Shown here: positions 12,336 through 43,500 of the stretch, piece after piece
How positions within the stretch are numbered: position 1 is the first letter of the stretch
Layout: each line of letters starts with the position of its first letter
Assembly (NCBI GenBank): GCA_030248065.1
Contig: JASAMV010003498.1
Coordinates: 116,602-180,601, forward strand
Length of the DNA: 64,000 bases
Source of the DNA: Rhynchonema sp. JSB1_4
Taxonomy: Eukaryota > Nematoda > Chromadorea > Monhysterida > Xyalidae
Direction: 5' to 3'
Position numbers and translations under genes: made by a program
Notes under the pieces: model-generated
What the model was told of the DNA's origin: nothing
The model's database searches: none
Seen by the model: the letters and a program-made list of their open reading frames with translations, nothing else

Positions 12336-15300
12336 ATGGCCAGTGTTCCACAACAACCTGCGGCTGGTTTGTTTAAATGTTTGCTTTTTTATTGTTTATG
12401 TAAGAAAAACATTGTTTTGTTTTGCAGACGCTAACAATGGTCGTGCGAGCGCTCGTCCGGCTGCATCGCGATCGCGCGACGTGCAGGATTCGGGCATCGG
12501 CTCGTCACCGCGTCGTTTTAGTCCCGGTTGGTTTCTGGAATGCCGTAAAAACCTAAACAGAAGGGGGGCTCTATTAATTCACTGACCCCATTTTGGGGGG
12601 CTCTATTCCGGGGGGCCTCTATTAATTCACTGACCCGAACCTGAAAATTGTTCCCAGAAACACCCCCAAAAACCTATAAATGGGTTTGAAAGGATGTTTT
12701 TTTCGCTTGTTATCGCATTTATTCGTGTCTATTCGTCAATTAGAGGCATATCATGTGCTCTGAACGAACAACAAACGTGCATAAATGTACCTGTGCACCA
12801 CTATCAAGCCTTAATACACTACTGTATGGGGATGTTACTTAGGGGGGGGGGGCAGTGTAGTTCCTGGTCCGGAGGGGGAACAGGCGGTACCCCCCTTTTT
12901 TCGGAGGGGGAACAGACGTACCCACCTGGGGGGAAGGGGGGGGACGGACCCGGAAGGGGGCGGGGGAGGACCCAAATTTGGAGAAAAGTCATTTTTTGAG
13001 GTCGAAAATTTGGCTCATTTTTGCCCCTTTTAGGAAAAAAGTCTCAATAAAAAGGGTATTTTGGCGATTTTTGACGACATTGACCTAAAAATCACTCATT
13101 TTATGCCTAAAAATGCCTATTTTAGGGCAAAATTTGCCTATCTTAGGTAAAAATTTGGGGAGCAGACGTACCCGGAGGGGGAACAGTGGGGCAGGCGTAC
13201 CATGGAGGGGGAACAGACGTACCCGAGGGGGACCCCCCTCCCCCCAGGAACTACACTGGGGGGGGGCGGGGGGCTCTATTAATTCATTGACCCTTTTTGG
13301 GGGGAGGCTGTGTGGGGGACTCTGTTCCGGGGGCTGTATTTAGGTTTTTTACGGTATACCGACTTGCTGTGGGATTCAACCGTCGTTGTCGTTCCCAAAT
13401 AGAACCACCAAGATTCTATATTTTTGCCGGGGTCCGTCACTTATGTATGTAGTTAATTTTTCGTGGTATGTAATTTTTCTTTTCTGTTTGTTGCCCGCAG
13501 CATGATGGACAGCAGCAGTACGGGCAATGAAAAAAACAGGGACTTTCAGGATCGTCCAGCCCCGACTCATCGAGCGACAAGAAGTCTGGTCATCGCAAAA
13601 CATCGACGTCGCCAAATTCCGGTTCGCGTTCGCCGGGCTCAGGCAGCACAGGCAGTCCACGTGACTTGTCGCCCCCGTTGCTGCAAGAATTGGCAAGCAT
13701 GAACGTGGTACGTTTTGTTTTTTATGTAGTAACCTTCAAACTTTACTGCGTGTCTGTTATATTCACTGTGTTGCGTTGCGTGATCAAGTAAGCTGTTGTT
13801 GTTGTTCAACATGGAAGAACACAGCCCTGTCAAGCTGCGCGCTACGTTGATTATGTGACGTGGCACACGTGTAAAAGGCAAACAACGCCAACATGAGCTC
13901 GATTTCGCATCTGGCAGAATGGTGAAACATTCTGACGTGGCTGCTGTTTTGGGAAATGTTACACGTTGAAGAATACAAAACGGAGCATGATGATTTTCTC
14001 TTTCTATTCGCTTTGAATACACACACCCTTCGAAATCGGGCTCGTGTTGGTGTAGTTTGTCTTATAGATTGTAAAATATGTCACGTTGTTCAGCCGCGGC
14101 GAAACGTTTCTCACATCCAACCGCATGCTTGCTTGCGTTTGAAACGTGTTCAGTGTTTTAACACGTGTCAGCCGCGTCACTTTTTTTTTGACGTGACCAG
14201 CGTGGACTGTCGAACGAACGCGAACGTCGATCACTTAGTTGCACGATTGCAGCGCTATCACAGTTTCGCGCGCGAGAATTCTGTTCAGTCATATTAACTG
14301 GGCCTCAAAACTAAGTTACAACTTTGCGTTGTGTTCTCCGTTTCCATTCGAAGAGCTTACATTGCATGAAAGCACCACGGGAACATTGAAAGTTCTCGCT
14401 CTCCCCACTGGCGTACCTCGCTCTCCCAACTCCCAAACCACCGAATTCAAAGTCACATGCTTCCTTTCTTGGCATTGCAGAGCGAGTTGCATCGCCGTCC
14501 GGACACGGGTTCGCTGGGTCGCCAGATCCCGGTCCGCTCCAACTTCTACCAGATTGGTATGCCCAACAAACCACCGATGGTGACGCAGTATCACGTCGAT
14601 GTGCAACATCCGGGCACCAGGAAATTGGATCGGTTGGTTTTCCGGTCATTGTCTGTGGTTTGACGGCTCATTGCCAGCGCATTGGGTCTCAGACAAAAAG
14701 AGTAGAACTTACCATTAAAAATCGATGTCTAAATCCTAACGATGTCAGAAAAATTTTAGTGATGAAATGCGTGTGATCTTCTGGAAAGTGGTGTCGGACA
14801 ACAAGGCGTACTTCCCCAAGGTGTATGCATTGGCGTTCGATGGTTCGCATCAGTTGTACACCACGCAACGACTGAACTTTCCGGAGGACAAAACATCGGT
14901 ATTTTTTTAAAGTTTCTGAACGAATTCAATCAACGAATTTCAAATGTTCCTGTTCAGATGAAATTGGACTGCAAAGTGTCGTTGCCGAAAGATCCACGCG
15001 AGGAGACTGAGTGCTCGGTGACTTTCCAGCAAGTTGGACCGGTGCTGTTGGACGTGAGCAAGGTGGGTCATGCTTCACACGTTCAGATTGTCACATTCTG
15101 CTTTGCAAAAATGTTGCTGAATTTTGACCGTCAAGTGTGTAAAGTTTGCAGGCGCGCATCGGCAACATCGAGGAGCGAATGTTGACGCCGATTCAAGTGA
15201 TTGATGTGATATTCCGTCAATCGCTGACGTGCCCGATGGTTGAGTAAGTGGTCTATTATTCTTGACAATGTTATTCTCTTTGCCAATCGTGTCTTCTATT

Positions 15301-18300
15301 TGTCATTTTTAATTTGCAGAGCGTCGAAGAACTTCTACTCGTTCAAGTCGTCCTTCTACCGCATTCCACAGGTGGCTGGTGGCGATTCAGTGAATTTGGG
15401 TGGTGGCAAGGAAATGTGGACCGGGTTCTTCTCGTCCGTGTTGGTCGCCAATGATTTCAAGCCTTTGCTCAATGTTGACGGTTGGTCATTTTGTGTTGCT
15501 TTTATTGGACTGTAGGACCGTCATTCGTGGGCGGATGAGTTTGAATATATTACCTTCTGTTTGTACACCACAGTGTCGCACAGTGCGTTCTACAAGGTGC
15601 GAATGCCCATGCTGGAGTACATGTGTGATGTGTTGAATGAGCGTGCCACAGGTGGGGGACCGCCGCAGGGTGGGGGACGTGGTGGCAGGTTGGTCTCATT
15701 CATTGTAGTATCTTTTTCACACTTATCTCTGAACTGACTCAAGATCTGAACCCAAAACTATTCTTTGCAGAGGTGGGCCTCGTGGCGGTGGCCCTGGTGG
15801 TCGTGGCGGTCACATGGGCGGACGTTATGGACAACAAGAAAGTGCGGGACCGTACAACGTGGGTACAATCAATTTGAATTTGCCATCAGCCATCTATTAG
15901 TTGTGAATGACATGGCGACAATGATGATCATTTTTGAGCTAATCCTTTGCCGAATTTTGTGTGGATTCCAATGATAGGACTGAGTCAACATCACGAAAAA
16001 ACTGCTGTTGTTTGAACTACGTGGCTATGGGGCACAAAACCACCGATGCCTCAAACAGGTGCAACAACTGAATGCGCACATGCGTCTGTCGCCACAAGAA
16101 CATCGTATCGTGGCTGATTCGGTCAAGGGTCTGAAAGTGCGTGTCTGCCATCGTGAGGGCGCCGTCCGTGTGTATCGTGTCAACGCACTCGTCGACTCGG
16201 CCGATCAATTGAGGTTTAGCGGTTTTTGATTGAGTTGCCTATTCAATGATCTGACGGAAGCGGTAAGCGAATAATCGATTATTTCACGGCACTCGTAATG
16301 GTTACAGTTTCACTACCGAGAAGGAAGACGGTACGAAAGTGCGCCAGTCGGTTGCCGATTACTTCTCGCAACGCTATGGTGCACTGCGCTACCCGTTGTT
16401 ACCGTGTCTGCACGTTGGCCCGCAACAACGCAACATCTACTTCCCCATTGAGGTTAGAATCATTTTTATGCACCCAATCCTGTTTTATGACCGAACGCAA
16501 TCTATAATGCAACTTACAGGTGTGCGAACTTGATTCGCCGATGAAGTACACCAAGAAGTTGAATGAAAAGCAGACGTCGACCGTGATTCGCGTAAGTTGC
16601 ACTTTTTACTGGGCTCATTTCAATTTTTCTCTGACCGTCATGACATTGCAGGCGGCAGCGACCGAGGCGCCTGCACGTGCGTCCCGCATTGAAAATCTGG
16701 TGCAGCAAGCCAGCTACAATCAAGATCCGTTCCTGCGCGAGTTCGGTCTGTCGGTGTCGCCGCAAATGGTGCAGATACCGGCACGTGTGCTCCCACCGCC
16801 CACCATACTCTACAATTCAAGCAACAATCCAGTTTGTCTATAGTTTCGCCATTTTGTTGATATTTTCATGGAATCACTGCCTTATTTAAATACAGAATCC
16901 ATCGGTGGTGCCGCGCGACGGTGTGTGGGACAGTATCTCGCAGAAACTGCTGTTGCCGGCGCAGTGCACTGGTTTCTCGTTGATCGCCATGGTGCCAAAA
17001 CAGCACGAGGGCACGCTGCAGTTAGTTGATTCTTGTTTTTGTAAGTATTGACGTGGCTTATTGAGCATGACCTGTAAGAAATAGTTTTTCAGACAATTCT
17101 GTCAAGCGTTCGCCCGCAAGGCTCGCGAAATGGGACTGAAATGGCCGGACTGGCCCGATCTTGTCAAATACGGTCGCACAAAGGTACACCTGGCAACTTT
17201 TCTACCTTTATACATGCGTATTTTTCCGCAAAATATATTTTTGAAAAAAAATGTTTTTTTCCGGAAAAAAACCGTTTTTTTCCAAATATTTTTCCAGTAC
17301 TTAAGGATACCCATGGTCCAAAAACGCCTATTTTGGAGAAAATTTCGTCAGGAAATGGCCTGAAACAGTCTAAAAATGCACTTGGAGATTAAAAAGTGCT
17401 CATTATGAACTGTTTAGTACCGATTTACATTGGTTTTAACAACATCCTCTCGCAACCTTGGAAAATATCTCGGAAATTTTTGGAAAAAAAACCGTTTTTT
17501 TTCCAAAAGTTGCCACTTGGAAAAATTTCCGGAAAAATAAAAACGTATTTTTCCGGGCCTCGGAAAAAAAACGGTTTTTTTCGGTTTTTTTTCGGAAAAA
17601 AACGGTTTTTTTTTCCGGCCCGCAAGTATAACCTGGTTTGGATAAACTTTCCGGTTTCTTTCAGGAGGACATCATGAACGCGTACCGCGAGATCGTCGAT
17701 GAGTACAAGCGAACGAACGCTAAATGCGACATTGTGTTCGTGATCATGGGCGGAAAGAACTCGGATCAGTACAGTGAGTGTGACAATCTGTTATTATCCG
17801 ACCGCATTTTGGCTCACAATGAGATCAAATCTTGTTGATAAGCTCTGTCTTTCCTTCCTACGCTCGTGATCTGCACTCTAAATACTTCGATATGTACGTC
17901 CAGTATAAGATCTAGTCCGAGATATCATGTGACCAAGCGGCTGTGGTCCGGTCTAATAACTACGAGTTAGCGACATTAGTTCCAAAGAAGCCAGTGTGAA
18001 TGTTTTGCAGTGATGGTGAAGGAGTGCAGCGACATGGTGCACGGTGTGATGTCGCAGTGCATCCTGCTCAAGAACATCATGCGATCGGCACCGGCCACCT
18101 GCTCCAACATTGTGCTGAAAGTGAACGCTAAATTGGGTGGTATCAACAATCGTATCGATGCCGATGAAGTGTTAGTTTTTACGTTGTTTGTGATAAATCG
18201 GTTCTCAAAATAATTAAGCATGAATTTCCCCTGTAATTTCAGGGCCAAGAAGTACCTGACCGAGAAGACGTTGGTGTTGGGCGTGGACGTGACGCATCCG

Positions 18301-20536
18301 ACGTTGATGGAAGAGAAACAGGGCGTGCCGTCCGTCGCTGCGGTTGGTGTTTTTGTGCTGTTTGAATTTGTGAAAAATCTCCAAAGTAACCCAAGTTACC
18401 TCCCGCTGCCACCACCCTTGCAGATTGTGGGCAACCTCGACCCGATGCCACAAACGTACGGCGCCAATGTGAAAGTGCAGAAGAAGTGCCGTGAATCGGT
18501 GGTGTATCTGTTGGACGCGGTGCGCGAACGTCTGGTGCACTTCTACAAGGCCACTGGTGAGAAGCCCGATCGTATCATCGTGTATCGTGATGGCGTCAGC
18601 GAGGGACAGTTTCTGGAGGTTGCTTATTGTGCATTGCTGTTGTTGTGCAGTCTGGTCAATTTGCTGTTTTGGTTGATTTGCGGCTTGGATGTTTGGATTA
18701 TTCTATTTTTATTTAGGTGCTGCGCGAGGAGATGCAGGGTATTCGCACCGCGTGTTTGATGTTGTCGCACAACTATCGTCCGCCAATCACGTGGGTTTCA
18801 TGAATTTGTCTTGATTTATGATTCCGATAAAGAGTTTGTGTGGACAACCTGAATTTTCATTATTTATTAATCGACCAAGTGCACCGGTGTGAACTTGCAG
18901 GTACGTGGTGGTGCAAAAGCGTCATCACGCGCGTTTCTTCACGCAACAGCCACGTGACGCGGTGGGCAAGTGCAAGAATGTGCCACCCGGAACCACTGTC
19001 GATTCGGTGATCGTCAGCCCCGAGGCGTTCGACTTCTATCTGTGCAGCCACTATGGCATTCAGGTGGCATCTTATTGGTTTTTTTGCCGTATTTCTAACG
19101 CAAGTTGCATGAACAAATGCACATCTGGCTCAGGGCACGTCGCGTCCGACCCGCTACGCGGTGTTGTGGGACGAATCTGGCTTCAAGGCTGATGAACTCC
19201 AGATGATCACGTACCAGGTATGTTTTGCTGCTGCATGATGTTTCATTTCCATGTATGCATCACGTCATCCTTACAGCCAGTGTAGTGGCTGGGGGGGGAT
19301 GGGGGGATTCCCCCCTAAGGAGTAGGTACCTTGCAACCACCCCTTGGGGGGGATGGGGGAAGGGTAGGTACCTTGCAACCACCCCGGAGGGTACCTTGCA
19401 ACCATCAGTTTATGGTTTTTATAGGCAAAAATGGGTGTTTTTCGACCTCAAAACCCCAAAATTAGCGCGCTCCGCGCGCAAACCTCCATATAATAGGTAT
19501 TTTAGGCAAATTTTCGGCCAAGATGCAAAAAAGTACCTGTTTTTCGGTCAAATTTGCAGTATAATGCATGCAAAAAGCCCTTTTTTCGGACCTCAGGGGT
19601 ACCTTGCAACCTTCCGGAGGCTGGGTAGGGGGGTACCTTGCAACCATCTGGATCCATCCCCCCAAGGGTACCTTGCAACCATTTGCCTGCCACTGCACTG
19701 CTTACAGCTGTGCCACATGTACTGCCGTTGTCCGCGTGCGGTGTCAATCCCGGCGCCGGTCTACTACGCCGATTTGGTGGCCACGCGTGCTCGCTCGCAC
19801 ATCAAACGAAAACTGTGAGTGACATTCGCGTGTTGGATTATTAGGATATGACAGTCTTTGATACAGGTTTGGTGTAAAACCCATCCAGCATTGACACAAT
19901 TGTTGTTTTAGCGGCGTGCACGACAGCGACAGTATGTCGGATGCGGGCAGTCAGGTGTCTGCTGGTCGTGGTGCACCATCTACATCGGCTGCATCGACCG
20001 TCACCGACACGGACAAACGCCGACGCAAACCTGGTGGGTGGTGTGTGCACGGTGGTACATTTGTCGTGATCGCTGTGCACACAAGTCAGACTGCTCCTGT
20101 CATCATTGCCCATTGGGCATGATAACAAAACAACCAATCACTATCTACCGGGCATGCCCATTAAGCACGATAGCAAACCAACCAATCACTATCTGCGGGC
20201 AAGACTATCAACCAAACCAACCAACTAACATCACAATGCCAGGTGGCCGTGGCAAGTCTACCGAACGCGACACGCAAGGTGAATCGGGTGCTGGTGTGTC
20301 GGGCGGCGGATCGTCGGGATCGGACTCGGGACTGCAGGAATGCGTCAATGTGAGTCCCATCATTTTATACGTCTGAAAACATCACCAATGCATTTATGTC
20401 CTGTTTCTAGTTTGCTACATATCAAGTTCATTCAAGTCAAATTCAGCGGTGCAATTGTGATGGAACAACTAAACAAACATCATGCTCCTGTTTGCAGGTG
20501 GTGGACGACTTCAAGGGTCGCATGTACTTCGTGTAA
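12336..20536 (+). CDS. AGO: Argonaute (AGO clade), complete, 27 exons
   Basis: A small-RNA-guided silencing protein, about 1055 residues. Exons: 12336-12366, 12428-12526, 13550-13707, 14481-14632, 14760-14898, 14958-15062, 15152-15243, 15320-15480, 15574-15688, 15771-15858, 16059-16213, 16308-16452, 16520-16591, 16652-16831, 16896-17020, 17093-17183, 17665-17773, 18011-18170, 18243-18342, 18424-18618, 18717-18790, 18901-19063, 19134-19217, 19708-19814, 19912-20033, 20243-20349, 20498-20536. All phases agree. The start ATG lies in AGAAAATGG. A Ser-rich tail (1-96) precedes the N domain; PAZ is about 380-565, MID about 565-725 (5'-phosphate pocket Y, K, Q and QCILLKN lysine present), and PIWI follows to the end. 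Slicer residues read D741, E783, D815 and D953. A Gly/Arg-rich insert (about 336-380) sits between N and PAZ. The protein ends RMYFV. Confidence 0.97.
12543..13354. mobile_element. CCGTAAAAACC element in AGO intron 2, hosting a hAT-type MITE
   Basis: Inverted ends CCGTAAAAACCTAAA and TTTAGGTTTTTTACGG. Subterminal motif GGGGCTCTATTAATTCACTG is repeated in both arms. A TA follows on the right; the left neighbour is TG. The intact relative at 23040-23210 has TA on both sides, suggesting Tc1/mariner-type insertion. The 12853-13258 element is inserted in it. Confidence 0.8.
12853..13258. mobile_element. hAT-type MITE, CAGTGTAGTTCCTGG ends (alpha copy 1)
   Basis: 406 bp with inverted ends CAGTGTAGTTCCTGG and CCAGGAACTACACTG. 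The 8-bp duplication is GGGGGGGG (12845-12852, 13259-13266), made in a G-run of the host element. The arm word is GGGGGAACAGACGTACC. The core matches the alpha copies at 22598, 23000 and 41693. Confidence 0.9.
17184..17664. repeat. GGAAAAAAACCG repeat in AGO intron 16
   Basis: This intron is mostly a repeat with many GGAAAAAAACCG/CGGTTTTTTTCC units and the segment CCAGTACTTAAGG. The same segment, inverted, is in the REXO2 intron at about 57525-57570. Fragments occur at 12080-12160, 27720-27900 and 29945-30100. A short-element family without recognisable termini. Confidence 0.65.
19278..19700. mobile_element. hAT-type MITE in AGO intron 23, duplicating the splice acceptor (beta copy 1)
   Basis: 423 bp, ends CAGTGTAGTGGCTGG and CCTGCCACTGCACTG, perfect 8-bp duplications CTTACAGC (19270-19277 and 19701-19708). 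The duplication contains the intron's own CTTACAG acceptor plus the first exon base, so the element is fully contained in an enlarged intron. Arm word GGTACCTTGCAACC. Confidence 0.95.
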
Positions 20537-21867: not shown

Positions 21868-22015
21868 ATCGGAAACGGGTCGGGTAAAGTCGGCCCGGCC
21901 CGGTCGGCGAAAAGTCCGGCCCGGCCCGGCCCGTTGGAGGGCTGCAGGTAAGCCTGGCCCGGTCAGCCAATTTTCAAGGGCCGAAAACTGAAAAACTGCA
22001 GAACACTTGTTTTCA
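21868..22015. repeat. GGCCCGGCCCGG array fragment
   Basis: A short array of the same word as the CAGAGGTCGCA elements (8579, 40759), without identifiable ends. Confidence 0.6.
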
Positions 22016-22130
22016 CTGGTGCACATACTATAGTAGTGGCTTGGGGGGGGGGGGGGTTGGGGGGGTTACCCCCCTCTGAGTACTTGCCTGCCAGCCCGAG
22101 GGTTGGGGGGGTTGAGTACTTACCTCTCAC

Positions 22131-22567
22131 CAGTGTGGTGGCAGGCCAATCGACCCAAGATACCCTAGGGGGGGGGGAAGGTTTCGGACTTACTCGAGAT
22201 ACCCCCAGAGGCTACCCAAGATACCCCTATGGTCCGTCAAAAGGCGAAAAAAGCCGTTTTTTGCATGCAATTTTACTGCAAAATTAGCCTAAAAATGGGT
22301 ACTTTAAAATTTTTTTGACATTTTTGCCGAAAATTGGCCTAAAATGACCATTTTTGGGTGCTTAGCGCGCGATTTTTGGGGGTCCCGAGGTCGAAAAACA
22401 CCTATTTTTGCCTTTGAAAACCATAAATCTACTTACTCGAGATACCCTTTGGGGTCGGCTCGAGATAGATACCCTTCCCCCCCATCCCCCCCTAAGGGTT
22501 GACTCGAGATAGATACCCCTTAGGGGTAGGGGGGAATCCCCCCCCATCCCCCCCAGCCACTACAGTG
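22131..22567. mobile_element. hAT-type MITE, CAGTGTGGTGGCAGG ends (beta copy 2), nested
   Basis: 437 bp with perfect 8-bp duplications CCTCTCAC (22123-22130, 22568-22575). Its framework and core match 19278-19700, but the arm word is CTCGAGATAGATACCC instead of GGTACCTTGCAACC. Confidence 0.92.
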
Positions 22568-22597
22568 CCTCTCACAACTCCAAATCATACCTCTCAC

Positions 22598-22988
22598 CAG
22601 TGTAGTTCCTGGGGGGGAGGGGGGGTCCCCCCCCCCTCGGGTACACTATCTCCCCCTCAGGTGGTACACTATCCCCCTATCTCCCCCTCCGGGTACACTA
22701 TCTCCCCCAATTTTTGCCTAAAATAGGCATTTTTAGGCCTAAAATTGGCATTTTTATACCAAAAATGTGTGATTTTTTTGTCAATGTTCTCAAAAGTCGC
22801 CAAAATGCCCTTTTTATGAAGAATTTTTTCCAAAAAGGGGCAAAAATAGGTCAAATTTTCCACCTCAAAAAGTGACTTTTTCCCGAATTTGGGTCTTCCC
22901 CCCCCTTCCCCCCTCGGGGTACACTATCTCCCCCTCCGAAAAAAATGGGGGGTCCGCTATCTCCCCCTCCGGACCAGGAACTACACTG
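22598..22988. mobile_element. hAT-type MITE, CAGTGTAGTTCCTGG ends (alpha copy 2), nested
   Basis: 391 bp with perfect 8-bp duplications CCTCTCAC (22590-22597, 22989-22996). Arm word GGTACACTATCTCCCCCT. Nearly identical to 41693-42071. Confidence 0.95.
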
Positions 22989-23039
22989 CCTCTCACAAGC
23001 AGTGTAGTTCCTGGTCCGGCGCGGCGGTTAGTGTACCTA

Positions 23040-23210
23040 CCGTAAAAACCTAAATAGAGCCCCCCCCCCCCCCCCCCGGAATAGAGCCCCCTCGGAATAT
23101 CGATCGAAAATAACACCGGATTTGGAACGCTCTCGCTGAGAAACGAAAATAATTTTTTGAAAATGGGGTCAGTGAATTAATAGAGCCCCCTTGTACTTAG
23201 GTTTTTACGG
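23040..23210. mobile_element. TA-flanked CCGTAAAAACC MITE, nested
   Basis: 171 bp with inverted ends CCGTAAAAACCTAAATAGAG and the reverse complement, flanked by TA (23038-23039, 23211-23212). Relative of 12543-13354. Confidence 0.85.
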
Positions 23211-23459
23211 TACCCCTTTTTTCCGTGCGGCGGTTAGTGTACCTCCCTGGGGGGAAGGGGGGGAAGACCCAAATCCAGGAAAAAGTCACTTTTTGAGGTG
23301 GAAAATTTGACCGATTTTTGCCCCTTTTTGGAAAAAATTCTCTATAAAAAGGGTATTTTGGCGACTTTTGACATCATTGACCTGAAAATCACCAATTTTA
23401 GGCCTCAAAATGCCCATTTTAGGCCTAAAAATTCCGATTTTGGGCAAAAATTGAGGCGG

Positions 23460-23990
23460 TTTGTGTACCTGGCGCGGCGGTTGGCAGTGTTGGAGGTGGG
23501 GGGGGGGTTTGGGGGGGGGGGTAGCCCCCCCCCAGTACAGTAGGTATCCCCCTCGCCTGGTACAGTAGGTACCTATTCCCCCCGATGTTTGGCATGGTAC
23601 AGTATGTATCCCCCCCGATTTTCACCCCGGTACACTAGGTATCCCCCCCCCCGATTTTGCCCCAAAAGTGCCAATTTTTGACCAAAATGGCCAAAATTAG
23701 TGTAAAATCAGTGGTTTTTACCTCAAATGACCCCAAATTCGCGCGCTACGCGCGCAAATACTACGTTGTCACGCGATTCCACACATAGGAAACACATGAA
23801 AAATTTTCACCCCAAAACCTAACCCCCCCAACCCCCCCCCCAAACCCCCCCTAGGTACAAAACCCCCCCAGGCCATCGGCTCTGGTACAGTAGGTATCCC
23901 CCCCTCTCCGAGCGCGGTACAGTAGGTATCCCCCCCTCCAGAGTACCTCCAACACTGGCGGTTGGTGTACTAGTGTATAGGCCTGGCGTA
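23460..23990. repeat. inverted relative of the 6.75-7.65 kb repeat
   Basis: Contains words TACAGTAGGTATCCCCCC and a GCGC palindrome at 23741. The uninterrupted ATTCCACA at 23776-23783 is the empty site corresponding to the insertion at 7020. Confidence 0.75.
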
Positions 23991-23994
23991 TGAG

Positions 23995-24875
23995 TGGGCA
24001 CAATACCCAATACCAATACCACCCAATACCAATTCCAATACCAGTGTTTGGTATTGGTATTGGGTTTAATTCTGGTATTGGGTATTGGTATTGAAGCTGG
24101 CCTGGTATTGGTATTGAGTATTGGTATTGGGTTTCGCCAGGTATTTGGTCAAAACCAATACCCAATACTAACCCAGAAAAACCCAATACCAAACCAATAC
24201 CAAACCCAATACCTGACACAAAACCCAATACCAAACCAATACCAAACCCAATACCAGACCAAAAACCCAATACCAAACCAATACTAAGACCAATACCCAA
24301 TACCAATACCAACCCAATACCCAAAATACCAATACCAACCCAATACCAAACCCAATACCAGGCACTTCAGTAGTATTGATTTGGTATTGGGTATTGGTAT
24401 TGGTATTGGGTCTCGCCCGGTATTGGTATTGGTATTGGGTCCTCAATTTGCTATTGGTATTGGGTATTGGTACAGGGCCGGTATTGGTATTGGTATTGGG
24501 TGTCAAAAGTGGTATTGTGCCCGTATTGGTATTGGGTGTCGTGGGTTTGGTATTGGGTTGGTATTGGTATTGAGTATTGGGTATTGGTCTTAGTATTGGG
24601 TTTTTGGTCTGGTATTGGGTTGGTATTGGGTTTGGTATTGGTTTGGTATTGGGTTTTGTGTCAGGTATTGGGTTTGTTATTGGTTTGGTATTGGATTTTT
24701 CTGGATTAGTATTTGGTATTGGTTTTGACCCAATACCTGGGCAAACCCAATACCAATACCAGGCCAGCTTCAATACCAATACCCAATACCAGAATTAGAC
24801 CCAATACCAATACCAAACACTGGTATTGGTATTGGTATTGGGTGGTATTGGTATTGGGTATTGTGCCCACCCATG
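23995..24875. repeat. GGTATTGGTATTGG minisatellite foldback
   Basis: About 880 bp of CCCAATACCAATACC arrays in two orientations, with inverted ends GTGGGCACAATACCC and GGGTATTGTGCCCAC. Long frames on both strands here are repeat translations. Related to 11525-11980. Confidence 0.9.
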
Positions 24876-25251
24876 CTAGTGTACTTTGGTCGCGGCGGTT
24901 AGTGTACCTTAGGGGGGGACCCACTCCCCCCAGGAACTACACTGCTCACAAGCAATTTTATACCTTTTTAAGGCAAAAATCGGTGTTTTTCGACCTTATT
25001 TTCCCAAAAATCGCGCGATCCGCGCGCAAACCCACCCATGATACCTATTTTTAGGCGATTTTCGGCGAAAATTTGGAAAAAGTACTATTTTTACCTCAAT
25101 TTTTGGCCAAAATTGTATCACAAAAATGGTGTTTTTTCGCCTTTTTGGGTGACCAAAATCATACCTCTCACGCTTCCGGTCCCAACCCCGCATCATACTT
25201 ACCTCCCACACGTGGGCCTGCCACTACACTGCTGGTGCAGCTGGGAGGAAG

Positions 25252-25590
25252 CAATGGTGTAGCAGGGGAGGGGGGTTGGGGGGTCCCCCTGGGTACAGTA
25301 GGTAGGTAGGTTGACGCTCCATCCTGGTACGGTAGGTAGGTCGCCGCCCGGCGGCTGGCGGTAAGTTGCTATTTTTGGCTCAAAATGGTATAAAATCGGT
25401 ATTTTTCACTCCAAATAGGCGAAAAATTGCACGCTACGCGCGAAATTAGCGTTTTAGAGCACATTTTCATCAAAATTTCGACCTAAAAAATGTTCTCCCC
25501 CCTAGCTCGGCCGGTACAGTAGGTAGGTTGCCGCCCCACATTTTTGGTGGTACAGTAGGTTGCCGCCCCGCCTGGGTAGCTACACCACTG
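25252..25590. mobile_element. hAT-type MITE, CAATGGTGTAGC ends
   Basis: 339 bp with ends CAATGGTGTAGC and GTAGCTACACCACTG; near-duplicate flanks GGAGGAAG (25244-25251) and GGGGGAAG (25591-25598), 7 of 8. Word TACAGTAGGTAGGTTG. It shows the host sequence of the 8756 element without the LINE. Confidence 0.8.
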
Positions 25591-34100: not shown

Positions 34101-37100
34101 AGTATGGCATTATCAGTTTGTGGTGAAACTAGAAAATAAAGAGATTCTAGTGACTTCTGTCCTGAGCTTCGCGGGGTTTGCGTTCGTGAGTCAATGATAG
34201 CAAGTTGATTTGTTGTAGAGTTCTTCGGTGTCAGCTGACGGACAGGAGACATCGCCTCAGCCACAACCACAGCCAGTAAGGGCAAAGGTACATGGTGTGC
34301 GAAATAACAAAATCCTCGATTAAAAGCAATTTAGAGAATAACGCAAAACCAACAAAGCATGCGCCTGAGTGGTCTAACGAGGAAATAAAGTGCTGTAATA
34401 ACCAGGGGCTTTCTTTTCAATGTTTTCCACTAGCCATTGACTAGTAAAACTCCGAAATCTACTAGCTAGAATAACAAAAAACATTAGCCCGTGGTGGTAA
34501 AGCTCAAAATTCCGCCAGCCAGTTTTGCTAGTAAATTTGGTTAAAAAATCCCTGGTTCTAACGAAATGTAGTGTAAAATAATTTGTATTTTCAGGCGATC
34601 GTCCCGTTCACTTTTGTCGGCACTCGCGAAAATATTGAAAACGCTAAATTCTTGCTCGAATACCACATCAATCACTTGAAAGTTCGTTGTCTTTCGTTTC
34701 TCTTTTTGTTTAATTGTTTTTTTTCAAAAACAAAGAAAAATACTGCAGGAAATGGACAAATTGCACACGGACGCCAACGAGATAACCCGTCAATTGCAAA
34801 GTCAGACATTTGGTGCCACTGGGGGCTCGTTCGGTCATGGATTCGGCAGTGGATTTGGTGCACCGCCCAGGGGGTTGGTACATCAACCGTTCAGACGGGA
34901 TCAACGGTGGGCATTGATTTTCTTACTATTCGGATTCTGAATATCTGATTTCCTACCGTACACAGTCGCACAACACGTGATTCCAAATCATGGTCACCGC
35001 TTAGAAGGGAACCTGTTTTGCGGTCTGTTTGTCATCTGATGTATTCGTACTGCCGATGACGTACCTGGTGCGCCAGCCGTCTCTGAAAACGTGTTGAAAC
35101 GACAAACCAGAGACGAGCTGCACATATCGTTGAGAGTAATCGAGTCGCCAAGTTGTTGCACGAATCTAAGGCGACCTGCAGTTGGTTTACTTACACACTG
35201 ACTGATATTGTTTTGATTTCATTTCAGTGGTTTCTCAGTCGAGCACGACACTGGCTCAGGCGGATTCCGTGGTTCGCGTGGTGGTGGCGGACATAATTTC
35301 GAAGGCCGAGGTGGATTCGGACAACGGGGTGGCTTTGGCCGTGGCGGTGGAATGCAAATGTCTAATGGTACTTTCGTCTTTATAATATTTCATTCTTTTG
35401 TCGTTGATACAAGAAAAGTGACGAAACTGATTCCCCGACAGATCTATCAGTGCTGAAATCTTCCATTACTGATTTCTTGTCTTCGGAGGAAATAGCAAGC
35501 GAAGGTTTCATGTATGCACGAACACAAATGACTTATTTCTTCAGGACCTGGCGGTTTCGGTCGTGGTCGGGGCGGCGGCCGTGGTGGATTCTCACGCGGT
35601 CGTGGAGGTGTGTTTCTCACCCAGTATCTGACAGTTGAACTTAAACTGTATTCTTCGTTGGTCGAATCCTCAACTTTTATTGCTAATTGTGCAGACGCAC
35701 GAGCGAGTGGTTCAACCGAGCATGACATGGAAAGTCGACCTGGTCGTGGTGGTGGTGGACGACGAAGACAACACGATGATCAGGCGATGATTGGCGATGA
35801 TAATGGTGGGGGTGGTGGTTGGCGGAGGGTTTTTGTGCAGTCAGCCGTGTTTACAGTCACATTCATTATCCAGAATGTCGATCAGAAATTCACGGCGTTA
35901 AAGGCACGGCGATCAATCACCCAAGAAAGGGCATTAATGTCTGCCCTGTTTATTGTGACTCCATGATAGAGCCCTGGTGTGTCTCCAGTGGGCCAGGCAA
36001 TTCCAGTGGAACACTCTCTTGATTGACCGATGATGCCTGGTGCTAGTCATCCCACAAAAATAGCGAGTGGATTAAGACACAAATTACAGTATTTTAGCGA
36101 GATTTTTCGTTCTAAAATTGATTTTCTTCACTATGTGTGTTAACTTGTTACAATTACACCAGACGACAGCACAGCGTCGCCATTCGAGGGTGCCCCACCG
36201 AGCGGTCGTGGCGGTCGCGGTGGACGTGGCGGGAAACGCGGCGGACGAAATCGTGGTCGCGGGGCACGTCATGTGACCGACTCGAATTCGGGCAGTAATG
36301 CTGCGTTCAATGGCGATACTGGAGGTGGCTTGATTGGTTCTTGTTCGTGGTTTCGTGTCTGTTTTGGTCAATGTCAAACCTGATAATCATACCGGATCTC
36401 CCAAAGTCACGAGCCGGGTTCTTTTCCCATTTTACTGGCTCATTGAGCCAGTATGAATTTGAAATGAGCCAGTAAGCAGCTACAGGAAGCACTTTCTGAA
36501 GGTAACAAACAGCCCAAAAATCGAAAAATTTTCCCGCGGTGTAAAATGCCAAAATTTTCGCGCTATGCGAAAATATTCTTTTTAGCATCAGAATGGCCCA
36601 AAAACACACTAAAGTGTGATAAAAGAACATGTTTTGCCTCTTTTTAGAATGAGCCAGTAGATTTTGCCAAATGAGCAGTAATGAGTCAGTGGCTCATACT
36701 GAAAAAACCCGGTCACGAGTCTCTGGCGGCAGGTGTGGCTATCGGGTGTTTGGGTGTCGGCCCTTTCCAAATGTAGTTGTCGGGTGTTCGGTTTTTTTTC
36801 GTGGTGTTTGGGTGTCAAGTGGTTAGTGTTTGGATCTTAGAATTTCCGAAAACGCATGTGGTCACATCGCAATTCATTTCTTCAACTTCGAAAATCTGAA
36901 AATCAACGCTTCAACAATCTAAAAATCACGCGCTTTGTGCGCAGATATCCTCATTTTCAGTCAGTGAAATTTGGGGTTCGGACGAGCAAAATAGAAACTA
37001 AAATGAACTACAGTGATTTTTCAAAATGGAAAAGGCGCTAGACAAAGCATTTTTTCGAAACATAAACGTCATTTAGCGTAATCAAGCAGTTGGTCTACGT

Positions 37101-37266
37101 TCCAGTCGATGACCCGTCCCTCGACCGCAGTGCCGACTCGAACATAGTCAACATTTCGAGCTCGGCGTCAACCGCGTCGTCAACGACTGCGGCCAGCAAA
37201 ACCAAACAGCATCCCGTTCGAAACAAGGACCAGATGGCAAATGCTGTTAACGGTACGCCGCGCTAG
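28106..37266 (+). CDS. FMR1: FMR1/FXR RNA-binding protein, paralogue A
   Basis: A cytoplasmic RNA-binding translational regulator. Exons: 28106-28150, 29392-29444, 29638-29803, 31101-31255, 31584-31677, 31738-31854, 31945-32133, 32234-32312, 33865-34007, 34219-34287, 34595-34681, 34749-34906, 35228-35367, 35545-35607, 35695-35805, 36163 to about 36349, about 37077-37266. Phases agree; length is about 681 residues. The N-terminal Tudor/Agenet-like part includes [20 protein letters not shown]1 has GLAIGNRG and KH2 has [19 protein letters not shown], both with GxxG loops. The tail is RGG-rich, and the last exon ends ANAVNGTPR, like the VNG end of vertebrate FMR1. The join of the last two exons is uncertain; reading through exon 16 would instead stop at 36383. 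Exon 10 (Q/P-rich) is absent from paralogue B. Exon 6 uses a GC donor or a 14-codon extension. Confidence 0.93.
30280..30927. mobile_element. TA-flanked element in FMR-A intron 3, TAGTCCA ends
   Basis: Inverted ends TAGTCCAGCCACCAGCTCAT and complement, about 30 bp, flanked by TA (30278-30279, 30928-30929). It shares the outer TAGTCCA with the hairpin element at 56762. The 128-codon minus frame inside has no domain. Confidence 0.8.
32481..33715. mobile_element. 1.2-kb near-perfect palindrome in FMR-A intron 8, TTAA-flanked
   Basis: Left arm 32481-33060 and right arm 33132-33715 are inverted copies over about 580 bp, around a spacer of about 70 bp. TTAA lies at both outer edges (32477-32480, 33716-33719), and the ends read AGGTGCTGGTCAACAACC and AGCTGCTG..., giving an inverted terminus. 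TTAA duplication suggests a piggyBac/Kolobok-type non-autonomous foldback. No transposase frame is seen. Its transcript would fold into one long hairpin. Confidence 0.9.
34403..34554. mobile_element. short hAT-type element, CAGGGNTTT ends, in FMR-A intron 10
   Basis: 152 bp, starts CAGGGGCTTTCTTTT and ends TTAAAAAATCCCTG. Flanks GTAATAAC and GTTCTAAC agree at 6 of 8. GCTAGTAAA-type motifs inside match 46730-46888. Confidence 0.7.
36414..36712. mobile_element. short element with CCGGGTT ends, downstream of FMR-A exon 16
   Basis: 299 bp, ends CCGGGTTCTTTT and GAAAAAACCCGG, flanked by the 7-bp repeat TCACGAG (36407-36413, 36713-36719). Arm word GAGCCAGTA in both orientations. GCGC-like palindrome at 36551. 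Confidence 0.8.
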
Positions 37267-38930
37267 TATGTATCCTTTGAGTAAAAAATTGAGTGAGGTG
37301 TCTTGTTTATGGCTGCATGTTTACATGAAGGCGTAACGTAATACCGTAACGTAACCACATCTAATACAAGAATAAAATTGAACGCGAACATCAAACATGT
37401 GGCCCTTTTTCGTGCAATTTTTAATCGCACCTTGTCTATACCCTGAAAATGTTGCCTAAATTTTTTTCTTCATGCATTTCGTCGCACGCGTTGCCCTCAT
37501 CTTACGTTTTTTTTCGATATCGTTCATGTTCATAGCTAGGTTCTGCATTTTCTGTGAGTTCACAAAAACAATGGCAGTTTCTATCATACCTGCACTGTAA
37601 TGCAATAGAAGCTGTCATCTTTGATCTGTGTCTTGTGCTTTCCATTTGACTTTGTGCTCATCATCATTGTTACCTAAATGATACCAATATTGGGTTTTGC
37701 ATAATTACTGTATAAAATGCTTGGTCTTGCACGGAAAATGTTACAGAATCCTTTTCGATAATTGGTTTCCGGTCTTTTTGTACTCCTTTTTATAGTGCTC
37801 ATGAAAAGCATTCATTATTTTTCGTTTGATGTTTTTATCTATTATTAGTGCCCCAAATTCTGAATTGTGCGTTTATTTTTTCCATCACGATGCTTTTTCT
37901 GCTGTCTTGTGCTTTGGTTCATGTCAATGTTTGTTTTGTTTGTAAAATGAAATGGTAACGTGGTACACATTATTCCGCAGTCGCAATACATACATACTTA
38001 GTGCTTGAGTTGAGACGTGAAGTTTATTCGCAAAAATTCTAGTGATTTTGTCGTGTTATACGTGTGTTAGAAACCATAGAACCAGTGTTTTGTCGCTCCT
38101 TTGATTAATAATTATGTTGCTATAGAGTCGATTATATCAACCGAATCTTAGTCAGATAACATTTGTGAGCTAATTGATGAGTGATAGATACAGTGGTGGG
38201 ACCTTGATCCTTATCATGTGAAAAATAACAGTCTTGATGTGAATTCTTGTTGTTGATGAATATGGAACTGCTAATTCGCTGTTCAAGATTACACCAATTA
38301 GTTACCCATAATTTGATAATATTATAATAATGTCACTTTGATTTTCCGCGGCCTAGCATGGCTTTTTCTTGCTGTTTTGTGGTTGTTATGCTACGTCGGT
38401 CGATGTAAAGTTGTTATGATCGCAAACTCGTTTGTGAGTGCAGAACAATTGGCGTCAATCGGTTTTGCGATTACATTATCGATTGTATTTCTCAAAATTG
38501 TTGCTATTGTGCCCGCAGCATTATGTTGAAATCGGTTTGGATATAAATTAAGTGCGTTCTTGTTATCAGACTTTTGTTTATCACAATTTCCATAGTTTAT
38601 CCACAAATATATTGATTTGTTGCGTGTTGCGGTGGTGATCAATGAACGTGTTATATAATCATGCTAAAATACTCTCTGATGTTTCGCAACTACGTATATA
38701 CATTTTCATGATACGGTGCTGCTGTTGTTACGGACGGAATCTGATCGTTTGTGCGATTTTGGGAATGTTGACCCTTTGTGTTTTTATCGGAATTATTATA
38801 CAATTTCACCCAATTTTCTTGTTGTGGTTGGAACAAAATAAATGTTTTCTTTGAGTTCTGTTTGTCGTGGCTTGCCTGAAAAGTGGGAAACCGTTTTTCG
38901 ATCGGCGGTAAAAAGCTAGACATTTGTTGA
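37267..38930. other. FMR-A 3' flank, no gene
   Basis: AT-rich DNA after the FMR-A stop. Frames of 60-83 codons exist but none shows a domain. Likely 3' UTR and intergenic DNA. Confidence 0.5.
37371..37376 (+). promoter_or_regulatory. likely FMR-A polyadenylation signal
   Basis: AATAAA about 105 bases after the stop codon, followed by T-rich sequence. Confidence 0.5.
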
Positions 38931-38934
38931 CGGC

Positions 38935-39320
38935 CCGAACTGCACGAAACCTGTCCACTAAAAGGCCCACTCTTGGTGCCTCACTGTCCCACCCCAAAAA
39001 CCCCACCACCACTAGTGTCCCACCGCCCTGGAAGCCCCACCCCTGCTGCCCCACCACCACCAGTGCCCCACCGCCTTGGAAGCCCCACCCCTGGTGCCCC
39101 ACCATTGGTGCCCACCGTGCCCCACTGTCAAGGTGCCCCACAATGCCCCGGGGTACGGTGGGACACCTCGACAGTGGGGCACAAGGGGTGGGGCTTTTAG
39201 GGGTTCGTAGTGGGGCACGGGGGTCGGACACGAGTGCTGGGGCTTTTTGGGAGTGGGGCGCCGACAGTGGGCCTTTCAGGGAGACTGCACAAAACGAGGA
39301 GGTGCGTTCGGTACACTTGT
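38935..39320. repeat. GGTGCCCCACC minisatellite foldback
   Basis: Arrays of GTGCCCCACC/GGTGGGGCAC with CTGGAAGCCCCACCC in two orientations, meeting near 39130. The edges have similar TTGTTGAC motifs. Frames of up to 184 codons are repeat translations. Confidence 0.85.
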
Positions 39321-40502
39321 TGACAGTGTGACAAAAGTGAACTAACCACAGTCTCTGCACGCGTCAACCAGTACAAAAGGGCAATGCGCAGAAGGAAAGT
39401 ACAGCGGTAAAGCGGTTGTCATTGTTTTTTTTAATTTCTTGCCGTTTTGGTTTACGTGAGTTCATGTTGACTGACGCATCACTTATTTCGCCGTCCTGTG
39501 GACAGTGTCATCAAAAGTTTGCTCCTCCACTCGACATTCCAAACGACTGTCACCATTTGATGGTGATTGGCTGATTAAATTATTTTAGTTTGGTGATTGG
39601 TTGGAATTAAAGTGATGTGCAGGCGTGCACTAAATTCAAACTTGGTTACGGTAAAATGCCAGAAAGAGAAACGGGTTGTTCTTTTTCTTTCTGTTTTGTC
39701 TGGAGCGGAGGTGTCAATCTGGCCAGACCCGCAGCCGCAACCCCCGACAGCCGACACGTCGGGCCCAGAGATTAGGATCGGGCCGGGTAACCTCGGCCCG
39801 GCCCGACTGGCCAAAACTCCGGCCCGGCCCAGCCCGATTTGAAAGTCCAAAATCGCGGCCCGGCCCGGCCCGATTTTGGGGTCAAGGGAAAAAATGGTAA
39901 AAAAAGACCAAAATTTCCAAAAATTTTCTTGGGGAAGCATGTTTATGTTTTTGTGATTCGGTTTTTGTAAACCGCGTCCATTTGGGCCCCACAAAAAATG
40001 TGCACATTTTATGCGCGAGGCGCCATTTTTGTAGATTTTTGGGCAAAAAATGCGCTTTTGGCTTGAACTTTGAGCAATTCTGGCCGGGTCGGGTCTCCAA
40101 ACTATCGGGTCTCGAGTTATTTTCGAAGTATCGGGTATCGGCTTCTTTCATGAACTATTAGATATCGGGTATCGGCATTTTCCAAGTATCGGGTATCGGC
40201 ATATCCGCGATACCGACCGATCCCTACTCGTCAGTGCGAACATTTCTGGGCAATTGACCTCCAAAAAATACGTCGAGCAGATCTTATTGCTGGAGTGAAA
40301 ATTGGTCGGTGGCACTAAAACAGGTCAAGAGGACCGTTGTTGTGCCTGAAAAGTAATCAAATAATAAATCTTGAATCTTTCGCAGATTTGGAACAACCGC
40401 AAAACTGACCCACAGAAAAACCACAAATCGACTGAGTTCAAAAAGTGAACCGATTCTAATTTTTGTTTTGGTCGAGCAGAAGACAACAACAGCGTCTTAA
40501 TA
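39321..40502. repeat. repeat fragments between the FMR genes, no gene
   Basis: 39760-39880 is a GGCCCGGCCCGA array related to the CAGAGGTCGCA family. 40090-40230 repeats TATCGGGTATCGG. 40230-40502 is FMR-B 5' flank; no clear TATA box. Confidence 0.55.
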
Positions 40503-43500
40503 ATGGAAATTGAAGTAAAGTTGCCGCAGAACAAAGGCTATTATAAGGTGAACCCGGAGTTTAAAGATTCGGTTTCTGACTGGTAACACACGGATGTGGT
40601 TGTGTTAATTTTTAGGCCTTTATGAAAGCGGCAAACCCAGATTCGCTGACGGTGACGTTTGAAAATGAGTGAGTTTCGTTTTTGGGATTTTTGTTGAATT
40701 GAACACAGGATTTGTTGACCGAAGTGCAAACGATCGTGATGGAGAGAAGTGTTGATTCCAGAGGTCGCAATCGGGCCGGGTTTGACTGGCTTCAGGGTAG
40801 TACTTGGGGGGGGGGGGGGTGGAAGGGTCCCCCCAAATTCATCTATCTATCGTCAACACTTTGATTTCATCTATCTATCGTCAACACATATGGGCAAATC
40901 TATCTACGCGCGGATTTAGTACATCTATATACATTTCCATTAATATTTACACATTATTACCTGCTTAATGCACTATACTATACCTTGATTTTTGGCGACC
41001 CCCCACCATCTATCTATCGTCAACAAGTTTTGGGTCGACCCCCCCAGATTTCGGACTTGGGTCATCTATCTATCGTCAACACATTTCGGGTCCCAGTCTA
41101 TCTATCGTCAACACCCTGACCAACTACTACACTGGCTGGCTTGGGCCACCAAATCTCTGGCCCGGCCTGAATTTTTTGGTCAGGTTTTTCTCACAATTTT
41201 TTTCATGTTTCTGAAGCTAATTTTCTGGCACAAAACGCATTGTTTTTTTATCAGAAAGCTGCGCCGTATGTCCGCGCCAAATCCGTCCTTAATTTATTTT
41301 TTCGACAAAAATATCATGATTTTTCGGTAACCGGGCAGCCCGGCCCGACCGCAACCAAATCTCCGCCCGGTCCTATCCGAGCAAAATGTCAATAAGCGCG
41401 ACCGGGATTGAGCTCGGTCCGGCCCGATTGCGACCTCTTATTGATTCACAGCTGGAAACAATGCCAACCGTTGCCTTACGACCAATGTCGGATGCCCTGT
41501 GCGAGCACATCCACATCGATCAATGTGAAAGAGGGTGAAATCGTCGAAGTGCTCGGTTGTCCAGACGACGTGCCCGTTGAGGGATGGCATGAGGCAACGG
41601 TCAAGAATATTAAAGTGAGTTCAGATTGGAAACGTCAATGTTCAGTCCAACAGTTTCACTCTTGATTTGTTGGCATGCGTCAACCCACACACCAGTGTAG
41701 TTCCTGGGGGGAGGGGGGTCCCCCCTCGGGTACACTATCTCCCCCTCAGGTGGTACACTATCCCCCTATCTCCCCCTCCGGGTACACTATCTCCCCCAAT
41801 TTTTGCCTAAAATAGGCATTTTTAGGCCTAAAATGGGCATTTTTTAGGCCAAAAATGAGTGATTTTCAGGTCAATGTTCTCAAAAGTCGCTAAAATACCC
41901 TTTTTCTGAAGAATTTTTTCCAAAAACGGGCAAAAATAGGTCAAATTTTCTACCTCAAAAGTGACTTTTTCCTAAATTTGTGTCTTCCCCCCCTCGGGGG
42001 TACACTATCTCCCCCTCCGAAAAAAAAACGGAGGGTCCGCTATCTCCCCCTCCGGACCAGGAACTATACTGCCACACACCACCATACGCGTTACGTTGTA
42101 GATTGCACTACCACGATCCACGGGTAAATAAGTAAATAAACCATGGTTATAAAAGTGGTTTAACGATTTTCTCCATTCTCTTCCGGTCCTTTCTTTTCAG
42201 GGCGAATACGCTGTTATCCAATTTATCCACTTTCCACATCACAACGGCGAAATTGTCACGCTGGAAAAACTGCGACCGATCACCAAATTCACACCACTGA
42301 CCTACAAGGGTCTGCACGAAGACAAAATCGTCGTTCCGGAAGATATTCGTCCACAGTTGGTTTCTTTGCCTCGCAAACATTTTTGTCGAAAGTGTGAGGT
42401 GTTGTGTAGGGTGGAACTGGAAATAAACTGACTGAAAATATCCCTGTGATTTTCAGTTGCGAAGAACTTGATGCAGCGGCAAAATTTTCGAAAGCAGTTG
42501 GCAATGTTTACGTGACGTTCAATGAACAAGAGGGAACGCTCGATCTGATAGTTCGTTGGCCATCGTTTTTTGCCTTCGCTGAAACAAAAAAACGCGTGAC
42601 TGTTTTGCAACCGTCCGGTACTTTCTTGCAGACCTGCTACCCCCAATCGCTGCGCCGTGCCCAGATGTTGTCCGATATGTTCTTCAAAGATCTCCATCAG
42701 AAAATAGTCATCAAATCACGAACACAGGACATGGCCAAACAGCTCCAAGTTTGTCCGACGTTTTTTTGGTTACTGTGCCAGTGTCCTGTCGATGGAAAAT
42801 GGCCCCTGGAGCTACCGTTGTTGTTTGTTAGAGGTTCACTGGCTATCCCTTGGGTGCATTCGCACCGGTGGAGGTGCCACTCACGAAAATGCGAACCTTC
42901 TGGGTAGTTTTGTCATGCTCCAGTTGCAACAATCGTCGAGCGAGCACAGCGACCTGGTGTGCGAGGAGTTCATAGTGCCACAGGAGTTGATGGGTCTGGC
43001 CATCGGTAATCGCGGCTCGAACATTGTGGCCGCACGAGCCATTGATGGCGTCAAATCGATTGATTGCGTTGACGCCTACAGCGGCAGGGGCGTCAACTTC
43101 AAGATCCTGGCCGAAGTTAGTTTGTTGTTTGCTTGACCGTTTTTGTAATCAGTGACGGTCAGGTTTGAGGTGCGTTCGCTTCGTAATGCGCACTGATGGT
43201 CGTCTGGAGCACGGCACGCAGATTTTTTTCGAAATTCTCCCGGTACATGTTTGCATGTACATTTGCTCCAAGAACGTCAAAACATTTGATGTGAATTCGT
43301 TTTTAAATGTGACTTGTTTCATTCACGAAAAATGGCGAAATTCTACGTATAAATTGCTCACAGGCCTCGAATCTTTAAGACCAACTGAAATTTTCAGGCT
43401 CGCGCCTTGGTGCACCTAAAGTGGTAAAAAAGACCATCACGTTTTTCTGTTGCAAGGCAGCTGAAAACGAACAACCGCAACCACATTTTTTGTAGTTCAG

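What the first reader, a model, noticed from the sequence alone, without database searches (positions are those of the whole stretch)
12853..42071. Transposon copies with the same frame and core but a different word, changed in concert at every arm position
Four alpha elements (12853, 22598, 23000, 41693) share ends, core and spacing. Between the constant blocks (GGGTAC ... CCCCCTCC) lies a short variable word present several times per element, in both arms. It reads GTCTGTT-like in the first, ACTATCT in the second and fourth, and is replaced by a GCGGCGGTTAG word in the third. Beta elements do the same: 19278 has GGTACCTTGCAACC where 22131 has TCTATCTCGAG, at three matching positions. A single point mutation cannot do this; the words are homogenised within each copy. 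hAT transposases are known to bind subterminal repeats, so word change might track transposase specificity or arise by template switching between arms. I know of no described element class with this behaviour.
Basis: partly seen in the sequence, partly recalled or inferred. Interest (0 to 1): 0.88.

Follow-up and report, generated by a model that had tools for sequence, protein, structure and literature searches.

The report
Mini-transposon families with swapped binding-site words
Many tiny non-coding transposon copies in this animal-like genome fall into families that share the same body but carry a different short repeated word at the same few places, most likely because the protein that moves each family reads a different word.

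Summary
The alpha elements are about 390-bp non-coding elements with hAT-like ends and 8-bp target duplications; word sites lie at five places, one doubled, in both arms. Among 65 compared copies there are four word classes: GTCTGTT (W1), ACTATCT (W2), ACTAACC (W3), ACTAATT (W4); none mixes classes. In a sample taken by word alone, 100 of 107 neighbouring site pairs match; six of the seven exceptions are nested or adjacent elements by sequence, the seventh by position. W1 and W2 differ at 30 of 42 word columns but 26 of 189 core columns; two W1 sublineages differ at 37 of 179 core columns but 1 of 42 word columns. Word class follows the core tree with the minimum of three changes. Beta elements repeat the pattern. 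So words mark families; they are not homogenised copy by copy. Best reading: transposase-binding subterminal repeats that define specificity classes, rewritten at all sites during transposase-site coevolution. Against a words-only view, spacers of W3 and W4 changed nearly as much. No transposase with these ends was found, so the binder is inferred. New variant of a known kind.

The parts
12853..13258 (-). Alpha element, word class W1 (GTCTGTT); word sites at 12871-12891, 12903-12923, 13153-13173, 13174-13194, 13204-13224
   Evidence: inserted in a run of G, so its TSD cannot be read uniquely
22598..22988 (+). Alpha element, word class W2 (ACTATCT); word sites at 22638, 22661, 22690, 22916, 22949
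   Evidence: 8-bp TSD CCTCTCAC
23000..24944 (-). Alpha element, word class W3 (ACTAACCGCCGC), interrupted by other insertions; word sites near 23021, 23227, 23453, 24897. Too long for the set of 65 copies
   Evidence: 8-bp TSD CTCACAAG
23485..23957 (.). Gamma element nested in the W3 element, own word GTACAGTAGGTAT
   Evidence: TSD GCGGTTGG
41693..42071 (+). Alpha element, word class W2; word sites at 41719, 41742, 41771, 41989, 42024
   Evidence: it lies between two exons that read like an FMR1-like gene (recognised from memory, no search)
19278..19700 (+). Beta element B1, word GTACCTTGCAACC at six sites
   Evidence: TSD CTTACAGC
22131..22567 (-). Beta element B2, words GTATCTATCTCGAG, GTATCTCGAGTAAG, GTATCTTGGGT
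   Evidence: TSD CCTCTCAC read by eye
22029..25231 (+). Host beta element B4 (words TACCTCTCAC, TACCTACCAC, TACCTCCCAC) into which the 22131, 22598 and 23000 elements inserted; left boundary approximate
   Evidence: by eye against B4 copies in L062, L064, L067, L077

Best explanation
These are non-autonomous hAT-type elements (MITEs). Each word site is a subterminal transposase-binding repeat made of a near-constant part (GGTAC) and a variable word read by the DNA-binding domain of the transposase that moves that family. When the transposase changed specificity, or a lineage came under a different transposase, selection on mobility rewrote all five to six sites in the master copies, while the ends stayed fixed and the core drifted. 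In W3 and W4 the rewritten stretch reaches beyond seven bases into the neighbouring spacer. Each successful word class then amplified, so every copy of a family carries one word. Shown: the anatomy, the word classes, no mixing, excess divergence at words, word class going with the core tree. Inferred: that the words are bound, that the binder is a transposase, and that selection on mobility caused the change.
For: 8-bp TSDs (47 of 70 candidate rows identical, 56 of 70 with at most one mismatch) and CAGTG ends, the same kind of ends as the hAT-domain elements of this genome (CAGTGTTCGAACG with 8-bp TSD). Consensus word columns differ more than core: W1-W2 30/42 v 26/189, W1-W3 38/42 v 24/189, W2-W3 15/42 v 11/189; TIR 0/30 in all six pairs. 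Fixed v polymorphic columns W1-W2: word 30 and 3, core 16 and 49 (Fisher p 2e-10). Within W1, core 37/179 different but words 1/42. Word class needs 3 changes on the core-only tree, the minimum. Site-specific forms stay in register across W1 and W2. The beta group repeats the pattern with three words. Precedent: subterminal sequences with Ac hexamers impart specificity (PMC3260210 passages); Hermes BED domains bind short subterminal repeats (PMC10368747 passages).
Against: No autonomous element with these ends was found. Of 37 hAT-domain loci, 30 have CAGTGTTCGAACG ends, 6 TAGGGATCGGCG ends, 1 neither. Three of the 37 also hold alpha ends: in L014 and L086 the hAT domain lies in a separate nested element, in L027 the alpha end lies outside the hAT element. 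L018 and L036 hold W3 words; L036 was not read through. Most loci reach only 1.5 kb each side. TSD base preference is only weakly hAT-like (T at position 2 in 27 of 56, A at position 7 in 16 of 56). Spacers differ nearly as much as words outside W1-W2: W2-W3 32/101, W1-W3 29/97, W2-W4 25/94, W3-W4 21/94, against 10/95 for W1-W2. The W1a-W1b arms are close (spacer 8/97), so their core contrast could be a core exchange and not drift (two W1b copies). Columns at six sites are not independent. Sampling leaned on similarity hits. W3 rests on 4 copies, W4 on 2; W2 and W3 are not one side of a branch in the best core tree (not rejected, p 0.26 and 0.39), and its bootstrap had not settled. In the papers: some Ds1 elements lack the hexamer and still move, and the right-end STRs of Hermes did not contact BED domains. 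No binding was tested.
Confidence: 0.6

Rival explanations
1. Gene conversion or template switching between the arms copied one new word over all sites of a master element, without selection on binding.
For: All sites of a family carry nearly the same word; the arms are repeated sequences that could mispair. In W3 and W4 stretches next to the words changed as well (spacer 32/101 between W2 and W3), as a tract longer than the word would give.
Against: Between W1 and W2 spacers differ at only 10/95 columns and site-specific forms are kept (both have C at word position 7 of site 2; W2 site 5 starts with G, as W1 words do), so a tract there could not have carried much more than the word. No partly converted copy among 65. 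Conversion alone does not explain why words stay fixed inside W1 while the core differs by 37/179.
Confidence: 0.17
2. The words are targets of a host repressor (a zinc-finger protein or small RNA) and changed in concert to escape it.
For: Fast between-family and slow within-family change is also what an arms race gives.
Against: Escape needs only loss of the site, yet each family has one precise new word at the same places in both arms, which is hard to explain without a positive role. No host factor was looked for.
Confidence: 0.12
3. The families are independent MITEs cut from different autonomous elements that merely share an old frame; the word change happened in those elements and not in the MITE lineage.
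For: Word classes group on the core tree, and MITEs commonly arise this way (general knowledge).
Against: The non-coding core is shared at about 81-94 percent between families, and no autonomous element with that core was seen in the limited search. This rival moves the place of the change, not its likely cause.
Confidence: 0.08

Closest known systems
VANDAL elements and VANC proteins, Arabidopsis (PMC5735166; passages and section 9 seen)
   Same: Short motifs, repeated in non-coding parts of a transposon, differ between related families and change together, tracking the specificity of a TE-encoded binding protein.
   Different: There the motifs spread by tandem-repeat formation and serve anti-silencing. 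Here the sites are dispersed at fixed places in both arms, spacers are kept between W1 and W2, and the elements are short hAT-like MITEs without genes.
Ac/Ds subterminal hexamers AAACGG, maize (PMC3260210; passages seen)
   Same: 8-bp TSD, short non-autonomous relatives, subterminal repeats that impart specificity.
   Different: One hexamer is described; no set of interchangeable words on one frame was in the passages seen.
Hermes STRs bound by BED domains (PMC10368747; passages seen)
   Same: Short subterminal repeats of a hAT element bound by the transposase zinc finger.
   Different: An AAGT-type motif, arranged differently at the two ends; no comparison of word classes across families in the passages seen.
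Mar, a hAT MITE of Drosophila (PMC3517528; passages seen)
   Same: Short AT-rich MITE with CAG-type ends and 8-bp TSD, assigned to hAT.
   Different: No arrays of words in the passages seen; relic full-length copies were found there, none here.

Membership tests
hAT superfamily (non-autonomous members) | 8-bp target site duplication | tested here: met
   47 of 70 candidate rows identical, 56 of 70 with at most one mismatch (the 70 include one non-member and four overlapping duplicates, removed)
hAT superfamily (non-autonomous members) | Short terminal inverted repeats beginning CAG-N-G | tested here: met
   CAGTGTAGTTCCTGG at both ends; consensus TIR columns 0 of 30 different in each of six family pairs
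hAT superfamily (non-autonomous members) | TSD consensus nTnnnnAn (Ac type) or nnnTAnnn (Buster type) | tested here: inconclusive
   T at position 2 in 27 of 56, A at position 7 in 16 of 56. The Buster form is given in PMC3517528; the Ac form is recalled
hAT superfamily (non-autonomous members) | Mobilised by a hAT transposase carrying the same ends | tested here: inconclusive
   Not found in the 37 hAT-domain loci examined, out of 150 scored matches
KDZ (Zisupton-type) elements, also considered | KDZ transposase in the genome | tested here: inconclusive
   No match to PF18758, but the control genomes were silent too
VANDAL/VANC-type motif coevolution | Motifs arise as tandem repeats | tested here: not met
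   Sites are dispersed at fixed positions in both arms; only site 2 is doubled
VANDAL/VANC-type motif coevolution | A TE-encoded protein binds the motif | not testable with these tools
   No autonomous partner found; no binding assay

The most novel reading that the evidence does not exclude
The subterminal sites are two-part addresses: a near-constant GGTAC half shared by several families with different ends, and an exchangeable word that sets which transposase can move the element. One MITE frame has hopped between orthogonal mobilisation channels by parallel rewriting of every site (at least four alpha words, three beta words), leaving a natural series for reading how transposase-site specificity evolves.
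Probability: 0.35. Interest if true: 0.78.

Novelty: new variant of a known kind. Interest (0 to 1): 0.57.

Why it matters
How a transposase and its many binding sites can change specificity together is an open question, because one changed site gains nothing alone. Here one frame with four word classes and thousands of sites, with words that change out of step with the core, gives a ready series for testing it and points to the columns that a protein probably reads. It also warns that repeat libraries built on ends and core could merge families that have different partners.

Tried and rejected
Autonomous partner: PF05699 gave 150 scored matches of 330 candidates. 37 loci were examined: 30 have CAGTGTTCGAACG ends, 6 TAGGGATCGGCG ends, 1 (L016) neither. 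L014 and L086 first looked like alpha elements with a hAT domain, but the domain sits in a TAGGGATCGGCG element nested in an alpha copy. PF14291 and PF18758 gave nothing, with silent controls. PF02892 gave 32 matches; the two fetched (L089, L090) are TAGGGATCGGCG derivatives.

Insertion preference for the words of other elements: 7 of 98 target sites overlap a word against 617 of 17275 random places (3.6 percent), p 0.06, looked for after seeing examples; not claimed.

Recombinant origin of W2 (core nearer W3, spacers nearer W1): considered; faster arm change on the W3/W4 branch explains it without recombination, but it is not excluded.

The first word/core table put a stretch of the G/C run into the word class; the corrected definition is the one used. 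Rows dropped: 70 candidates became 65 (one non-member, four overlapping duplicates); 64 of 65 entered the core tree. In one search the lists were cut to contigs below C136: 97 of 100 W1/W2 places, 99 of 100 W3 places, 38 of 100 W4 places.

Papers: searches of an open-licence library listed no paper whose title or abstract start describes word exchange at dispersed sites; only five papers were opened (passages), and subscription papers are mostly missing from that library.

On re-checking I lowered the main confidence from 0.62 to 0.60 and raised the conversion rival from 0.15 to 0.17, because the spacer differences of W3 and W4 had been left out.
Full report
WHAT IS THERE. The alpha elements at 12853, 22598, 23000 and 41693 are 379-406 bp long, apart from the third, which is enlarged to 1945 bp by nested insertions. 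They begin and end with CAGTGTAGTTCCTGG and its complement (one mismatch in the right end of the fourth). 47 of 70 collected candidate rows have identical 8-bp target duplications. Each has a G/C-rich arm with three GGTAC-word sites, the second doubled, an A/T-rich core of about 190 bp, and a second arm with two sites.

WORDS ARE FAMILY-WIDE. From the window and the loci fetched up to I took 65 non-overlapping alpha copies of 330-430 bp: 19 W1, 40 W2, 4 W3, 2 W4. The interrupted element at 23000 is too long for this set. W4 (ACTAATT) was not in the finding and was met in L086. Of 295 sites within two substitutions of a class word, 291 are nearest to the copy's own class; the other 4 are the ACTAGTAC form of site 2 in the four W3 copies, which W3 shares with W4. 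Because many copies were fetched by similarity, I also used the listed genome places of the word patterns on contigs below C136: 234 sites, 107 same-strand neighbour pairs within 360 bp, 100 with the same word (1000 shuffles: mean 32.6, maximum 48) and 7 with different words. Four of the seven were fetched: two are an alpha element nested in another (L091, L092) and two are neighbours (L093, L094). Two more lie at elements already in L069 and L073, where an element boundary falls between the sites. The last (C43) is read from the place list alone: three W4 sites, then the W3 pair of what looks like the next element.

WORDS CHANGE FAST BETWEEN FAMILIES AND SLOWLY WITHIN. Between family consensus rows, word columns differ at 30/42 (W1-W2), 38/42 (W1-W3), 29/42 (W1-W4), 15/42 (W2-W3), 16/42 (W2-W4), 12/42 (W3-W4). 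Core columns differ at 26/189, 24/189, 32/168, 11/189, 17/168, 19/168; the ends at 0/30 in every pair; the GGTAC columns at 0 to 3 of 25. Against a words-only picture, spacers differ at 10/95, 29/97, 19/89, 32/101, 25/94, 21/94 in the same order: low for W1-W2, but close to the words wherever W3 or W4 is compared with W2 or with each other. Part of this is that the changed stretch is longer there (ACTAACCGCCGC against ACTATCTCCCCC). Inside families, non-consensus cells are rarer in words (7/784 in W1, 12/1664 in W2) than in core (155/3464, 150/7541). Fixed against polymorphic columns for W1-W2 are 30 and 3 in words, 16 and 49 in core (Fisher p 2e-10). Columns at six sites of one element are not independent, so these p-values describe columns, not events. 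The sharpest contrast is within W1: the two copies of L072 and L074 differ from the rest at 37/179 core columns but 1/42 word columns, while W1a and W2 differ at 26/189 core and 30/42 word columns. Their spacers are also close (8/97), so an exchanged core is an alternative to drift.

INHERITANCE. A tree of core columns alone (64 rows) needs three changes of word class, the least possible for four classes; shuffled labels need 21.2 on average. W1 is one side of a branch (97/92), W4 too (88/81). W2 and W3 are not in the best tree, but one clade is not rejected for either (p 0.26 and 0.39). The bootstrap had not fully settled and the root is not inferred. So the word goes with the lineage.

IN PLACE OR PASTED. 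Between W1 and W2 the spacers keep their own letters at each site. Site 2 is doubled in all four classes, with the word in both halves. W1 and W2 share C at word position 7 of site 2, and W2 site 5 starts with G as W1 words do. This favours stepwise substitution under selection over copying whole sites for that step, but it is a handful of positions; for W3 and W4, where spacers changed too, copying is not excluded.

BETA ELEMENTS. B1 (19278), B2 (22131) and a third family B4 align along ends, arms and core, with GTACCTTGCAACC, GTATCTATCTCGAG or GTATCTCGAGTAAG, and TACCTCTCAC-like words in matching columns of the left arm; the right arm of B4 aligns with a gap at one site. B2 is 73 percent identical to B1 over 334 bp; B1 against three other B2 copies is 82 percent over 184 bp of core. 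B2 uses three word forms within a copy, the same in the three copies aligned, so uniformity inside a copy is not absolute.

HOW IT PROBABLY WORKS. hAT transposases read subterminal repeats: in Ac/Ds subterminal sequences impart specificity, though some Ds1 elements without the hexamer still move (PMC3260210 passages); Hermes BED domains bind left-end repeats, while right-end repeats were not seen bound (PMC10368747 passages). A word that is fixed within a class, present at every site, and replaced at every site between classes is what a change of binding specificity would leave. The nearest published behaviour is VANC and its motifs in VANDAL elements, where units within tandem repeats diverged together (PMC5735166 section 9). 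Here the sites are not in tandem. That the binder is a transposase is inference: none with these ends was found among 37 hAT-domain loci.

VERDICT. It is a new variant of subterminal-repeat coevolution, with an unusually clean natural series.

Noticed in passing
window 22029-25231: A B4-type beta element carries three insertions whose duplicated targets (CCTCTCAC, CCTCTCAC, CTCACAAG) overlap its own words. Tested over 98 insertions in the loci: 7 overlap a word against 3.6 percent expected, p 0.06.
   Followed up: partly
L014, L018, L086, L089, L090: Copies of a TAGGGATCGGCG hAT-type element keep a dimerisation-domain stretch (L014, L018, L086) or a BED zinc-finger stretch (L089, L090); 28 of the 32 BED matches score nearly alike. 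They could be repressor-like fragments.
   Followed up: no
L009-L038, L081-L087: A CAGTGTTCGAACG family of 1.1-1.5 kb elements keeps a hAT dimerisation domain between ends made of GATCCCGATCCC repeats: 30 of 37 loci have such ends, 26 as a matched pair with TSD. Near L015's domain there is also a BED match.
   Followed up: partly
window 23485-23957; L018 2270-2970; window about 25280-25360: Gamma (GTACAGTAGGTATCCCC) and delta (GTACAGTAGGTAGGT, tail TGCCGCCC in L018) elements share the first part of the word but differ in the tail, like W4 against W3, although their ends differ.
   Followed up: no
window 7010-7456: Another CAGTG-ended element (CAGTGCTGTGGCT) with word GTACCCTACCCGCCC; in 7 of 7 copies found in window and loci the commonest word starts CCTAC.
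   Followed up: partly
window 8579-11334: Element with CAGAGGTCGCA ends, GGCCCGGCCC arrays and TSD CATTACAG, holding a 606-codon open frame that reads like a non-LTR reverse transcriptase (recognised by eye).
   Followed up: no
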